Positions 4,327-10,850 of a DNA stretch of 64,000 nucleotides are shown here, in pieces. Made by a program: the position numbers and the translations under genes. This stretch comes from Psychrobacter sp. DAB_AL43B. Lineage in GTDB: Bacteria; Pseudomonadota; Gammaproteobacteria; Pseudomonadales; Moraxellaceae. Under the pieces are notes generated by a model that saw only the letters and a list, made by a program, of their open reading frames with translations, searched no databases and had not been told where the DNA came from. The stretch is taken from NCBI RefSeq assembly GCF_900168255.1, contig NZ_LT799838.1, positions 2,604,001-2,668,000 of the forward strand, read 5' to 3'. Each line of letters starts with the position of its first letter. Positions within the stretch are counted from its first letter, which is position 1.

Positions 4327-5060
4327 TTATGCTACATATTTTTTACGTACAATTTTTGTCATCTCGACCATGTTACGCAGTTGTTGGCGCACTTCTTCCC
4401 AGTTACGCGTTTTTAGACCACAGTCTGGGTTAATCCATAAGCGCTCAATTGGAATATATTTTTGTGCCTCATCAATCATGATCTGCATAGCGTCGCTATC
4501 AGGGGCGCGCGGGCTATGAATGTCATAGACGCCTGGGCCAATGGCATTTTGATAGCTACCTTTTTTTCAATAATGGCTTGAGCATCGCTTACTTGTTTAA
4601 ATACTTGGGTAAAATCAGTATTGCTGAAGTCTTCATCGGCTTCTAATTCAGGCACCAAGTAATGATAGTTGGTATCAAACCACTTGGTCATTTGCCAAGC
4701 CGCATTGTCTTCATACTGACCGGTATGGTCGCGACCACGGGCAAAATAAAACTGACGATCAAAGGTATCTAATGTTTCGGCACCAGCAAAACGTGGTGGC
4801 TGCACACCGAAGGAAACTGCTTGGCTGAGCACTAAATCATAATGAGCAAAGTCGCCAGTGGTGATGATATCAAGACCTGCATCGATTTGATCTTGGATAT
4901 TGGTGGTAAATACTTCTAACAAAGCGGCTTGAGTTGCTTCTTTATCTTTTTTACCTTTCCAGTAATGCTCTAAGGCAAATTTGGTTTGGCGTTTATCACC
5001 AATACGTGGGTAGCCTAGGATATGGCTAGGTACTCTAGATCGTGGGATTGTGGTAGTCAT
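4327..5060 (-). pseudogene. metE: metE remnant: N- and C-terminal pieces with the middle deleted and a frameshift
   Basis: Cobalamin-independent methionine synthase is normally about 755 residues. Here the first about 170 residues (LGYPRIG start, ITTGDFAHYD, NYHYLVPELEA) are recognisable. They are followed at about 4560-4570 by the last about 80 residues, [13 protein letters not shown] through [19 protein letters not shown] to a TAA at 4327. Roughly 500 codons, including most of the catalytic C-terminal barrel, are missing. The two pieces are also out of frame across a run of seven A residues on the coding strand. One extra A would join them. The open frame alone ends at 4476 with nonsense residues. 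The start has a good GGAG site. A non-functional remnant is the simplest reading; a misassembly is the alternative. Confidence 0.88.
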
Positions 5061-7414: not shown

Positions 7415-7777
7415 ATGCGTACTGATTCATTTCAGCAAATCTTGGAAGACCTAAATAGCTCATCAGCCGATGTTGAAGCATCTGCTCTCATTTCTAACGA
7501 TGGTCTTATGATTGCATCTGCGTTACCAGCAGGCGTTGATGAAGACCGCGTTGGCGCTATGTCAGCAGCTTTATTATCACTAGGTGATCGTGCAGGTCGC
7601 GAATTGGCTCGTGGTAGCATTGACCGTATCATGATTCAAGGTGAAAAGGGCTACGTGATCATGACTTCATCGGGTGATGAAGCAGTACTAACCATTATGG
7701 CAAAACCGAATGCCAAACTTGGCTTAATATTCTTAGATATTAAACGTGCCTCTGAAGCGCTTTCGAAACTTATCTAA
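7415..7777 (+). CDS. Roadblock/LC7 domain protein (MglB-like fold)
   Basis: The 120-residue protein is a single Roadblock/LC7 domain. The pattern is an N-terminal helix, ASALISNDGLMIASALP, a long middle helix (MSAALLSLGDRAGRELARGS), IMIQGEKGYVIMTSSGDEAVLTIM, and an amphipathic C-terminal helix. Bacterial members such as MglB often regulate small GTPases or act as dimeric scaffolds; no MglA-type GTPase is in this window. It is first in a run of five plus-strand genes, though 306 bp separate it from the next. The start has a modest GAGAAA site. The partner and role are unknown. Confidence 0.85.
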   Translation: MRTDSFQQILEDLNSSSADVEASALISNDGLMIASALPAGVDEDRVGAMSAALLSLGDRAGRELARGSIDRIMIQGEKGYVIMTSSGDEAVLTIMAKPNAKLGLIFLDIKRASEALSKLI

Positions 7778-8083
7778 TAATTGGTTTTAAAGTGCTAACG
7801 CTACGGTTCTATACCGCGCCTGCAATACAAATGCCTTCTGTGTATAATACTTTAAATGAAAACGGACGCACTGTCTTATAAAAATTATTTAAGGTATTGC
7901 ACACTGTTTAGATTGAATGAGTGATTATTGAATAAGTGATTAAAGCTTCTAAATATCTATGAATTCTAATCCTAGCGAATCACATATCCATACTTATTAA
8001 AAAATAAGCGCGTTAAAAAACAAACGTAAATCAAATAAGTTTTTTAATGACTATCCATACAACAATAAATAAAGGAGATTACG
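7778..8083. other. Intergenic region between Roadblock and PAS genes
   Basis: The 306 bp are AT-rich with no open frame and no recognised RNA or clear terminator. It may contain a second promoter for the PAS gene, so the Roadblock gene and the genes behind it may be separate transcripts. Confidence 0.4.
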
Positions 8084-8578
8084 ATGGGTTCTCCACTACC
8101 TGACGCAATGAAGCCTGACCTGCCAGCCGAGCAGATCACTCTGACTTATCATGACGGTGCATCGCGTACTATTTATGATACTGGTATCGAACGCCCTTAT
8201 CCTGATGGCAAGCTGATTGTTTCGCGTACCGATTTAGACGGTATTTTGACTCACGTTAATGATGCCTTTGTTGAGATTAGTGGCTACGCTGCTGATGAGC
8301 TGATCGGTCAGCCACAATCTATTTTGCGCCATCCTGATATGCCAAAAGCTGCCTATAAAGATTTATGGTCAACCGCAGAGGCTGGACAAAAATGGCATGG
8401 CTACGTTAAAAACTTATGTAAAGATGGCAGCCATTATTGGGTTTACGCGACTGTCGTGCCCAACGTTCGTCGCGGCGAAACCGTTGGCTATACTTCTGTA
8501 CGCCGTAAGCCATCGCGCAGCAAAATTGATGCGGCTATCGCTCAGTATGCCCAAATGAAACAAAACGAGGAAGGTTAA
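8084..8578 (+). CDS. PAS domain protein, Aer-like sensor module
   Basis: The 164-residue protein is essentially one PAS domain (about residues 43-150): LIVSRTDLDGILTHVNDAFVEISGY, then ELIGQPQSILRHPDMP, KAAYKDLWST, WHGYVKNLCKDGSHYWV and GYTSVRRKPSR. This arrangement is that of the PAS domain of Aer-type energy-taxis receptors, which bind FAD. There is no membrane segment, HAMP, kinase or methyl-accepting domain, so any signal must pass by protein contact. AAGGAG gives a strong start. It ends 3 bp before the PhnD-like gene, so the two are translationally close. The bound ligand is not predictable from sequence alone. Confidence 0.85.
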   Translation: MGSPLPDAMKPDLPAEQITLTYHDGASRTIYDTGIERPYPDGKLIVSRTDLDGILTHVNDAFVEISGYAADELIGQPQSILRHPDMPKAAYKDLWSTAEAGQKWHGYVKNLCKDGSHYWVYATVVPNVRRGETVGYTSVRRKPSRSKIDAAIAQYAQMKQNEEG

Positions 8579-8581
8579 ATC

Positions 8582-9331
8582 ATGACGACACATAATATGT
8601 TAATCGCCCCTGATTTTTCGCCTGAGCGTTTTGCAGGCTGGCATATGTTTAATATCTTGATTCAAAAACGTGCCAATCTAAACATGCATCTAAATATGCC
8701 TGCCTCACATGCTGAGCAAGAAGCGCTTATCGACGCAGGCGACATGCAAGTTATTTATGCCAACCCTTTTGATGCAGCAACGCTCATCCGTGAGCAAGGC
8801 TACCGTGCAGTTGCGCGCCCTATCGGTAAATCTGATGAGATGGTCATTGCAGCTTCAGCAAATAGCGATATCAATACTCTAGAGGACTTGGCTAATGGCG
8901 CGACCATTGCTATGGCAAATAACCGTGATGTTAAGCTGATTGGTTTACGCCTACTAGAAGCGGTCGATTTAGAAGAGGCGGACTTGAATTGGTCAGTGAC
9001 CGAAACCTATCAAGCAGCAGCACGCCAAGTTATCAAAGGCGATGCTCAAGCGGCATTCTTTTTAGCTGAAATTTTCCACAGCTTTTCACGCTTAACCAAA
9101 GCGCAGTTAACTGTATTAATCGAAAGTGATTTGGCGGATATTAGCCATGTATTGCTGATTAAAGAGGGTTTTCCTGATACAGAAATTCTGATGAATGCCA
9201 TTCTGAATTTGCATAACGATGATGATGGTAAAGAAGCATTGGCTGAACTTGGTATGCCTCAAGGCTTTGAAGCTATGGACGAAGAAGATGCTGAGTTTAT
9301 GATCGACTTGATGGAAACTTTAATTGACTAG
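8582..9331 (+). CDS. PhnD-like periplasmic-binding-fold protein without signal peptide
   Basis: The 249-residue protein resembles PhnD/TauA-type substrate-binding proteins (MLIAPDFSPERFAGWHMFN, VIYANPFDAATLIREQGYRAVARP, TLEDLANGATIAMAN, GDAQAAFFLAEIF). The N-terminus is polar, with no signal peptide or lipobox, and no ABC permease or ATPase genes are nearby. It is therefore probably a cytoplasmic sensor or adaptor rather than a transporter component. The acidic C-terminus (AMDEEDAEFMIDLMETLID) is distinctive. It follows the PAS gene by 3 bp. The fold is fairly secure; the ligand and role are unknown. Confidence 0.75.
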   Translation: MTTHNMLIAPDFSPERFAGWHMFNILIQKRANLNMHLNMPASHAEQEALIDAGDMQVIYANPFDAATLIREQGYRAVARPIGKSDEMVIAASANSDINTLEDLANGATIAMANNRDVKLIGLRLLEAVDLEEADLNWSVTETYQAAARQVIKGDAQAAFFLAEIFHSFSRLTKAQLTVLIESDLADISHVLLIKEGFPDTEILMNAILNLHNDDDGKEALAELGMPQGFEAMDEEDAEFMIDLMETLID

Positions 9332-9405
9332 CAGGTTCACTGGCATCTGACTTAGGTCATAGCCTATTGCGCTACCATATTGGCTATGACTGACAGGACA
9401 CTATT

Positions 9406-10023
9406 ATGTCTGATTTAGACCTTATCAAAGAAAGTGAAATGGCCGCGCGTGGCGTATATCGTCTCTACTCGCGTAAGATATTTTTGGCACCAAACAATCG
9501 CCATTTTCACGAACAACGTATCAACGCAGCACTGTTATTAAACGAAAAAGAGCCGCTGCAAGGTGCCATCGCAGATTTCTTTTATGGTTGCTGGTATGAT
9601 ATCCCTTACGATGTCACCAACATGTTTACGCGCTTGCAAGGTCGTCTATTGCCTCACATAGAACAAGGTTTTCGCGATTGTATCGATAAAAAAAGCTATA
9701 TCCAAAAAAATAGTACGCTGGCGACCCGCTGGAGCGTACTGGTATCGCCTTCACTAAATGAACAGACCCAGCGTTTACGTATCAGTAGTGATGACGCCAA
9801 AGAAATCGCGAAAGACATCACCGCCGAGCTGATGCTAGCACGTGATAATCAAAACTTGGATACAATAGAACAAATAGAAAATGAATTCTTTGCTCATTGT
9901 ATTGCTCGCAACGACCGTTTGGCATTCTCCTTAGTTTGGTTTCGCTTGGGTAAAAGTGACTGGCAATTTGATGATCGCTGGAATAATTGTCAACAAAAAC
10001 TTGATCAAACCACTAAAGCTTAG
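9406..10023 (+). CDS. Protein of unknown family in the Roadblock-PAS cluster
   Basis: I do not recognise this 205-residue protein. It is soluble, mixed in charge and Trp/Tyr/Phe-rich in places (DFFYGCWYDIPYD, LVWFRLGKSDWQFDDRWNN). It has no signal peptide or membrane helix, and appears mostly helical. AGGA lies upstream of the ATG. It starts 74 bp after the PhnD-like gene and ends 53 bp before the next cluster member, consistent with one operon. A role in the same signalling unit is inferred from position only. Confidence 0.7.
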   Translation: MSDLDLIKESEMAARGVYRLYSRKIFLAPNNRHFHEQRINAALLLNEKEPLQGAIADFFYGCWYDIPYDVTNMFTRLQGRLLPHIEQGFRDCIDKKSYIQKNSTLATRWSVLVSPSLNEQTQRLRISSDDAKEIAKDITAELMLARDNQNLDTIEQIENEFFAHCIARNDRLAFSLVWFRLGKSDWQFDDRWNNCQQKLDQTTKA

Positions 10024-10076
10024 ATTTGCTCTTTTGTTAAAACGACTCATAAAACTTCATTTGAATGGTAGCTGTT

Positions 10077-10691
10077 ATGTCCTCTTATTTAAACGCTGAT
10101 AAAACGTATCTGACCTTGACTCCAGCCGGTATTTTTGAGGCCTTTTCACAAAGTGAGCCAACTGCTGAACAGCTATCATTACAAGATTTATTATCCTATA
10201 ACGAGACTTTGCTAGCCGCTGACTGGCTCGAACGCTATTCTGATGAGTGGTTAGATAGCTTTTTAGAACACGGCTGGATCGAGAAGCTGTCGCTATTCTT
10301 GCCCGCTCCCAATTTGCCATTAGACCAGTTTTTACCTTATGTAGTATCGAGCTTGTCCGGTAAACGCCGTGCAGCGATTGGCTCTGATGAAGGGTTTTGC
10401 CTAGCGCGGATAGGCTATAGCCAAGAAGAAGCAGACATGCTTAGTGTGGCTGCTGCTGACTTTTCGGGCTTTATGCTACGCCAAAAACAACGCGGCTGGG
10501 CCGTAGAAAGTCAAGCTATCTCATTCTTTCAGCAAGTTGATTTACTGATTCCTGAGACCAGCTTTGTGTTCTTATGGATTGATGGTTCAGGCTACGTGCT
10601 CATCATTGATGGCGAACCTTTGACCAATAATCGTGCCTTTGTTGAGCTGGTCTGGGCATTAAAAACTTCTGGGCTTAGATTTCTGAGTTAG
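10077..10691 (+). CDS. Protein of unknown family, last gene of the Roadblock-PAS cluster
   Basis: I do not recognise this protein of about 204 residues. Two in-frame ATGs exist at 10065 and 10077; the second, giving MSSYLNADKTYL, is preferred only because its N-terminus looks more natural, and neither has a strong ribosome-binding site. It is soluble and acidic. An N-terminal helical half (LSLQDLLSYNETLLAADWLERYSD-type residues) precedes a C-terminal alternating strand region. A strong hairpin terminator 68 bp downstream closes the cluster. Confidence 0.65.
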   Translation: MSSYLNADKTYLTLTPAGIFEAFSQSEPTAEQLSLQDLLSYNETLLAADWLERYSDEWLDSFLEHGWIEKLSLFLPAPNLPLDQFLPYVVSSLSGKRRAAIGSDEGFCLARIGYSQEEADMLSVAAADFSGFMLRQKQRGWAVESQAISFFQQVDLLIPETSFVFLWIDGSGYVLIIDGEPLTNNRAFVELVWALKTSGLRFLS

Positions 10692-10759
10692 AACTCATAA
10701 ATTAATACTACCGAATGAAGTCAACTGCATTAAAAAGTCCGAAAATCTAAGCTATTAAG

Positions 10760-10793
10760 TGCGCCTTATTATAAATAATAGGCGCATTTTTTT
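10760..10793 (+). terminator. Terminator of the Roadblock-PAS cluster
   Basis: The stem TGCGCCT-(T)-ATTA pairs with TAATAGGCGCA, with one bulged T, and is followed directly by a seven-T run. Confidence 0.85.
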
Positions 10794-10850
10794 ATGGGAT
10801 TAAAAAATGTATTAATGAAATTGAAGCCTTTATTAATAACGTACAAGCAC

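What the first reader, a model, noticed from the sequence alone, without database searches (positions are those of the whole stretch)
7415..10691. Uncharacterised five-gene signalling-like cluster: Roadblock, PAS, PhnD-like, two orphans
Five plus-strand genes end at a strong terminator (10760-10793). They combine an MglB-type Roadblock protein, a single soluble Aer-like PAS domain, a PhnD-like binding protein with no signal peptide, and two proteins I cannot place in any family. No kinase, GTPase, receptor or transporter is present. The parts are those of a ligand- or redox-sensing scaffold, yet the set matches no named pathway I know. Seen: order, spacing (3 bp between PAS and PhnD-like), domain motifs. 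Inferred: that they work together.
Basis: partly seen in the sequence, partly recalled or inferred. Interest (0 to 1): 0.72.

Follow-up and report, generated by a model that had tools for sequence, protein, structure and literature searches.

The report
Roadblock sensing cluster without its GTPase
Five neighbouring bacterial genes that are inherited together look like a soluble sensing module built on a Roadblock protein, the usual partner of a small GTPase switch, and in this branch of bacteria the switch gene seems to have been lost while the Roadblock protein stays almost unchanged.

Summary
In detail: five plus-strand genes (Roadblock, Aer-like PAS, PhnD-like, two orphans) end at a good terminator, and they form a unit. 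Of 119 same-family genomes, 34 carry all five, 2 keep only the two orphans (one with a truncated Roadblock remnant) and 83 none. Of 77 named loci, 74 have the full set in one order. The last orphan is predicted to hold a second, divergent Roadblock domain; the other is all-helical and matched nothing. In Moraxella and a few Psychrobacter, two more genes sit between the orphans: an MglA-type small GTPase with Group 3 motifs and its usual partner. So the window's set looks like a Group 3 MglA/MglB-type system that shed its GTPase (two changes on the trees). Eight of 18 five-gene genomes of this genus have no detectable MglA-type GTPase, yet Roadblock has the lowest dN/dS (0.010) of nine genes compared. 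Best reading: a cytoplasmic redox/ligand-sensing Roadblock scaffold that no longer needs its GTPase. Mechanism and output are inferred or unknown; a link to the Chp/pilus system had no support once kinship was allowed for, in a weak test.

The parts
7415..7777 (+). Roadblock/LC7 (MglB-like) protein, 120 aa
   Evidence: PF03259 64.8 bits; closest solved relative by sequence 7f8m (Thorarchaeota Roadblock) 1e-27, Myxococcus MglB only 2.5e-4; 77 of 120 columns invariant over 73 rows; dN/dS 0.010
8084..8578 (+). single soluble Aer-like PAS protein, 164 aa; putative FAD redox sensor
   Evidence: E 9.8e-37 to the Aer PAS domain 8dik; positions of Aer R57, H58, W70, W79, N85 identical in 75 of 75 rows (residue list and numbering recalled)
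8582..9331 (+). PhnD-like binding-fold protein without signal peptide, 249 aa
   Evidence: PF12974 118.9 bits; low hydropathy of the first 45 residues in 76 orthologues and the window (a simple hydropathy measure); 3 bp after the PAS gene, median 3 over 74 loci
9406..10023 (+). ORF1, all-helical orphan, 205 aa
   Evidence: No family above cut-off and no convincing PDB sequence hit; model pLDDT 83.8, pTM 0.56; no fold match better than E 0.32; relatives with a given name are Psychrobacter, Moraxella or Faucicola (120 of 128 listed)
10077..10691 (+). ORF2: acidic winged-helix-like N-domain (about 1-79) plus predicted divergent Roadblock domain (79-203)
10757..10794 (+). intrinsic terminator closing the set
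   Evidence: -16.5 kcal/mol, z -3.08, followed by a T run

Best explanation
The five genes encode one cytoplasmic sensing complex derived from a Group 3 MglA/MglB-type system. SHOWN: the genes are co-inherited in fixed order; relatives hold two more genes at a fixed place (a small GTPase and a Group 3-like partner); eight of 18 five-gene genomes of this genus have no detectable MglA-type GTPase; the Roadblock gene is nevertheless the most constrained of the nine compared. INFERRED: the two genes were lost on the line to this genome and once more elsewhere. The PAS protein binds FAD and reads redox state, and the PhnD-like protein binds a cytoplasmic solute. They act on a Roadblock assembly (Robl dimers and/or Robl with the Roadblock domain of ORF2). 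That assembly switches the ORF1/ORF2 pair, whose acidic winged-helix-like domain contacts a protein target. The GTPase was an optional input or output of this scaffold, not its core.
For: Co-inheritance: 34 of 119 family genomes have matches to all five, 2 have only ORF1+ORF2 (G033 also a truncated Robl remnant), 83 have none. Order: 60 of 77 named loci five-gene, 14 seven-gene, 3 incomplete. The GTPase lies between ORF1 and ORF2 in 14 of 36 cluster genomes (places); where the interval was read, the partner gene accompanies it (8 of 8 loci, 15 of 15). GTPase presence changes twice on a PilQ tree and twice on two cluster trees. No GTPase match in 8 of 18 five-gene g1 genomes with two different queries, while Robl there is 97-98% identical to the window's. 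Robl dN/dS 0.010 against 0.032-0.051 for its four neighbours and 0.026-0.120 for four flanking genes. Only 2 of 120 Robl columns separate five-gene from seven-gene sets. Predicted second Roadblock fold in ORF2. Aer-type PAS residues kept. The cluster seems to have moved as a unit into G101: PilQ puts it in genus g15, its cluster (4 proteins used) with the g10 rows at 99/96.
Confidence: 0.5

Rival explanations
1. Robl still serves a GTPase in trans: the cluster's Roadblock regulates another MglA-type GTPase, such as the one in the BLUF-GTPase-Roadblock cluster elsewhere in this genome, and the PAS/PhnD proteins tune that GTPase.
For: This genome and 9 more of 18 five-gene g1 genomes carry an MglA-type GTPase elsewhere. 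Roadblock/MglB proteins are classically GTPase regulators (PMC4316618, section 18 and passages read).
Against: Eight of 18 have no match with either query, and their Robl is 97-98% identical to the window's. The BLUF-linked GTPase has its own adjacent Roadblock.
Confidence: 0.2
2. The module controls type IV pili / twitching, as MglA/MglB do in Myxococcus and as an orphan mglB is reported to do in Snodgrassella. This concerns the output and can hold together with the best explanation.
For: A ChpA orthologue (at least 500 bits) is in 35 of 36 cluster genomes against 59 of 83 others, Fisher p 0.001. In Snodgrassella an orphan mglB mutation is proposed to alter T4P-dependent motility (PMC11112851, passages read).
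Against: With kinship allowed for there is no support: independent pairs, median p 1; the test has only 5-6 pairs and little power. Chp and cluster are missing together in one 11-row Moraxella-type clade. In g15, 22 of the 24 genomes other than G101 have ChpA without the cluster. PilQ is nearly universal (111 of 119 over the cut-off), so it does not discriminate. No pilus gene lies in the cluster.
Confidence: 0.3
3. Two separate functions share one locus: a Robl-PAS-PhnD sensor set and an ORF1-ORF2 pair, kept adjacent by co-transfer rather than by a joint complex.
For: The two decayed loci (G023, G033) both kept ORF1+ORF2 (G023's ORF1 matches from residue 36 only) and both lost PAS and PhnD, with Robl lost or truncated.
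Against: ORF1+ORF2 lack the full Robl-PAS-PhnD set in only 2 of 36 genomes, and the reverse was not seen in the 119. Order is fixed across genera whose flanks differ.
Confidence: 0.15
4. A decaying remnant of a GTPase system with no present role.
For: GTPase and partner are absent; two loci are visibly decaying.
Against: dN/dS 0.010-0.051 for all five genes over 60 five-gene rows; 74 of 77 named loci complete.
Confidence: 0.03

Closest known systems
Group 3 MglA/MglB systems of beta/gamma-Proteobacteria (Wuichet and Sogaard-Andersen, PMC4316618; section 18 and passages read)
   Same: Seven-gene relatives have an MglA-type GTPase with the DAR G5 motif (14 of 14 rows) and a TH[AS]E-type G4 without lysine (11 of 14 matched that pattern), a partner whose C-terminal part matches proteins beside other MglA-type GTPases of this family (hhalign 91.9%, E 7e-7), and Roadblock proteins.
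   Different: The window's version has neither GTPase nor partner, and adds an Aer-like PAS, a cytoplasmic PhnD-like protein, a helical orphan and a winged-helix-like/Roadblock protein. Group 3 assignment was not tested on a tree.
Actinobacterial conservons (CvnA-D; PMC4316618 section 18)
   Same: Multi-gene locus around an MglB-type Roadblock and, in relatives, an MglA-type GTPase; sensing proposed as the input.
   Different: No histidine kinase and no CvnC-type family hit among the five products; the likely sensors are soluble PAS and PhnD-like proteins.
MglC and other orphan (uncoupled) Roadblock proteins
   Same: Roadblock proteins not encoded beside a GTPase. PMC4316618 counts 328 of 749 MglB homologues as uncoupled and says none had then been characterised (passages).
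   Different: Here a whole conserved gene set persists, in some genomes with no detectable MglA-type GTPase. MglC works in a cell that has MglA and MglB (recalled; PMC7949163 seen as search listing and two passages).
Aer aerotaxis receptor
   Same: PAS domain closest to Aer (8dik, E 9.8e-37); 7 of 9 recalled FAD-site residues identical in the window, the other two H to Q and F to Y.
   Different: 164 aa, no hydrophobic segment, no HAMP or chemotaxis signalling domain.

Membership tests
Group 3 MglA/MglB system | MglA-type GTPase encoded in the locus | tested here: not met
   Absent from the window's cluster; present in the cluster in 14 of 36 cluster genomes
Group 3 MglA/MglB system | conserved partner with receiver-like N-terminus and winged-helix C-terminus | tested here: not met
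   Absent here; in seven-gene relatives the C-terminal part of c6 matches such partners (hhalign 91.9%); its N-terminal fold was not tested
Group 3 MglA/MglB system | GTPase of relatives branches with reference Group 3 MglA | not tested
   Only motifs and neighbourhood were compared; no tree with reference members
Group 3 MglA/MglB system | one or two MglB/Roadblock proteins | tested here: met
   Robl by Pfam; a second only by predicted fold
Roadblock/LC7 family | PF03259 above its cut-off | tested here: met
   7415-7777 product: 64.8 bits, cut-off 23
Roadblock/LC7 family | ORF2 (10077-10691): Roadblock fold | tested here: met
MglB equivalog | NCBIfam NF052242 cut-off | tested here: not met
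   15.8 bits against 200
MglB equivalog | GAP activity on a cognate GTPase | not testable with these tools
   Needs purified proteins
Aer-type FAD-PAS | cofactor-site residues | tested here: met
   R57, H58, W70, W79, N85 positions identical in 75 of 75 rows; the residue list is recalled
Aer receptor | membrane anchor and chemotaxis signalling domain | tested here: not met
   164 aa, no hydrophobic segment, PAS families only above cut-off
PhnD ABC binding protein | export signal and adjacent permease/ATPase | tested here: not met
   No hydrophobic N-terminus; no transporter gene inside the set; PhnD equivalog 12.1 bits against 261
Conservon | histidine kinase CvnA and CvnC | tested here: not met
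   No such family among the five products
HEPN/AbiU2-like (UniProt name of one ORF1 relative, P0145) | conserved Rx4-6H motif | tested here: not met
   Commonest column has it in 35 of 78 rows; no Pfam hit above cut-off

The most novel reading that the evidence does not exclude
A bacterial Roadblock signalling scaffold that works without any GTPase: soluble flavin-PAS and PhnD-fold sensors feed a Robl/ORF2 Roadblock assembly. The ancestral GTPase was an add-on that two lineages dropped without altering the Roadblock protein.
Probability: 0.4. Interest if true: 0.75.

Novelty: new variant of a known kind. Interest (0 to 1): 0.55.

Why it matters
Bacterial Roadblock proteins are explained mostly as GTPase regulators. 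A conserved gene set in which the Roadblock gene is the most constrained member while the GTPase is gone, in some genomes with no MglA-type replacement found, is a natural experiment on what Roadblock proteins do on their own, in culturable environmental bacteria. It also proposes a fold for one orphan family and links 60 listed five-gene loci with 'hypothetical proteins' to the MglA/MglB world.

Tried and rejected
Chp/type IV pilus co-occurrence: the raw count looked strong (35 of 36 against 59 of 83, p 0.001) but independent pairs on a PilQ tree gave no support, with only 5-6 pairs and so little power; kept as an output guess. A first look with PF02895 was too insensitive: no match in G080 or G105, where the ChpA query found orthologues. 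PF03029 as a GTPase test missed this genome's own GTPase, so it is not used as evidence of absence; searches are. HEPN reading of ORF1: rejected. ORF1 fold search: nothing significant, best E 0.32. Sequence link of ORF2 to Roadblock, to c6 or to the BLUF protein, and of c6 to the BLUF protein: none by hhalign. DNA-binding role for the ORF2 N-domain: unlikely at a median charge of -8, but that domain was not folded alone. Literature: searches listed no paper on this cluster, judged from titles and abstract starts; several lists were capped (20 of 75, 6 of 6, 20 of 43, 8 of 8, 12 of 11,816 and 10 of 30 shown; one search showed 7 of 7; one search found 0). The library lacks most subscription papers and holds no bioRxiv preprints of its own.

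My ORF picker missed ORF1 in L041 because of a longer antisense frame; one search shows it there. For dN/dS only pairs within the stated dS limits were used, L139 was left out of the five-gene set, and glutamate dehydrogenase, tried as a further flanking gene, gave no usable rows.
Full report
What is there. Five plus-strand ORFs at 7415-10691 encode a Roadblock/LC7 protein (120 aa), a PAS protein (164 aa), a PhnD-like protein (249 aa) and two proteins of 205 and 204-208 aa. Pfam gives Robl_LC7 at 64.8 bits, PAS_3 at 57.2 and Phosphonate-bd at 118.9, all above cut-off; the last two proteins have no family above cut-off and no convincing solved relative by sequence. PAS and PhnD-like are 3 bp apart. 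The set ends at a hairpin with a T run at about 10757-10794 (z -3.08).

It is a unit. In 119 genomes of the same family, matches to all five occur together in 34. Two more genomes (G023, G033) keep only ORF1 and ORF2, G033 with a truncated Roadblock remnant, and 83 have none. Paralogues of PAS (up to 54% identity) and Roadblock (up to 49%) elsewhere were not counted. The PAS gene is cut by a contig end in G100, split in G025, and shows a stop in G112. Of 77 named loci found with an ORF2 alignment, 60 have the five genes in this order, 14 have seven, and 3 are incomplete, two of these at contig starts. The flanking genes differ between genera. The PAS-PhnD spacing has median 3 bp over 74 loci.

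The missing GTPase. In Moraxella-type genomes, and in Psychrobacter pygoscelis, I-STPA6b and I-STPA10, two genes sit between ORF1 and ORF2: c6 (about 380-470 aa, no Pfam hit in the three scanned) and a small GTPase (PF03029, 44 and 35 bits in the two scanned). The GTPase has GxxGxGKT, YGTPGQ and DAR motifs in 14 of 14 rows, and a TH[AS]E-type G4 without lysine in the 11 of 14 that matched my pattern. PMC4316618 gives the DAR G5 and the missing G4 lysine as features of Group 2 and Group 3 MglA, and describes the Group 3 partner as a protein with a receiver-like N-terminus and a winged-helix C-terminus (section 18 and passages read). The C-terminal half of c6 matches four proteins that sit beside other MglA-type GTPases of this family (hhalign 91.9%, E 7e-7). 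I did not place the GTPases on a tree with reference Group 3 members, so the label rests on motifs and neighbourhood. On a PilQ tree and on two cluster trees, presence of the GTPase changes twice: once on the line to core Psychrobacter, once on the line to G006/G042/G033 (L139 among the named loci). The GTPase is on both sides of the deepest split of the midpoint-rooted trees, so loss is the simpler reading, but the root is not independently fixed.

No replacement found in many genomes. With a Moraxella cluster GTPase as query and with this genome's own paralogue as query, the same 8 of 18 five-gene g1 genomes have no match (G051, G074, G077, G091, G096, G099, G114, G116). Seven of 18 have the BLUF-linked GTPase at 78-99% identity, and three have a more distant one (one of these showed a stop). 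This genome is among the seven. Robl in the eight is 97-98% identical to the window's.

Constraint. Over 60 five-gene rows, median dN/dS is 0.010 for Robl, 0.032 ORF2, 0.045 ORF1, 0.047 PhnD-like and 0.051 PAS; four flanking genes give 0.026-0.120 (with 11-47 rows for the flanking genes). In the 14 seven-gene rows the values are 0.061, 0.078, 0.127, 0.147 and 0.103, from few pairs within the dS limits (4-41 of 91), so the five-gene lineage is lower throughout. Robl is invariant at 77 of 120 columns over 73 rows, and only two columns separate five-gene from seven-gene sets. So the absence of the GTPase left no visible mark on Robl. I infer that what constrains Robl is shared by both forms and is not the GTPase.

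The sensors. The PAS domain is closest to the Aer aerotaxis receptor. Of nine Aer FAD-site residues (list and numbering recalled, not read here), the window keeps seven, and five are identical in 75 of 75 rows. The PhnD-like protein has no hydrophobic start in orthologues, so both sensors should be cytoplasmic. No ligand is known.

Function and output. The Mgl analogy suggests type IV pili, and one 2024 paper on Snodgrassella (PMC11112851, passages) proposes that an orphan mglB mutation alters pilus-dependent motility. I tested co-occurrence: ChpA is in 35 of 36 cluster genomes and 59 of 83 others (Fisher p 0.001), but independent pairs on the PilQ tree give no support, in a test of only 5-6 pairs; one Moraxella-type clade lacks both. 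I therefore leave the output open.

Movement. G101 belongs to genus g15 by its PilQ (support 100), yet its cluster (Robl, PAS, PhnD-like and ORF2 used) groups with the g10, Moraxella-type rows (99/96). It holds all seven genes (L052), so the set seems to have been transferred whole, which also argues for a unit.

Verdict. It is a new variant of a known kind. Whether it truly signals without a GTPase is the open and testable point.

Noticed in passing
L002 (G000:C1:2462146-2465361), outside the window: A second Roadblock in this genome lies in a three-gene BLUF protein - Ras-like GTPase - Roadblock set; the BLUF protein has a C-terminal extension without a Pfam hit.
   Followed up: partly
L054 (G020:C47:46000-59000); L053 (G012) looks alike by eye, not scanned: In another genus a GTPase sits with an ABC ATPase fused to a tyrosine-phosphatase-type domain, two Roadblock proteins, a 2Fe-2S ferredoxin-globin fusion and a PAS histidine kinase: a larger Roadblock-centred redox cluster.
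   Followed up: partly
L056 (G013:C2:336000-348000); L055 (G059) looks alike, not scanned: GTPase and Roadblock genes followed by a metallophosphatase-domain protein and a double-globin protein.
   Followed up: no
window 7840-7905: Long imperfect hairpin between the Roadblock and PAS genes (z -2.89 for the 131-nt stretch 7775-7905), not followed by a T run; none of the 16-mers sampled from it recurs in the window.
   Followed up: partly
window 4476-5060 (-): A 194-aa ORF that reads like the N-terminal part of a MetE-type methionine synthase (recalled, not scanned) and stops early; possibly a broken gene.
   Followed up: no
L139 (BMPS01000005.1): Record titled Streptomyces cinereus carries a Moraxella-type cluster and groups with Moraxella atlantae, macacae and boevrei; the title or the assembly looks wrong.
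   Followed up: partly
L042 (G023) and L048 (G033): Two decayed loci in different genera kept ORF1+ORF2 and lost PAS and PhnD, with Roadblock gone or truncated, which hints at two sub-modules.
   Followed up: partly
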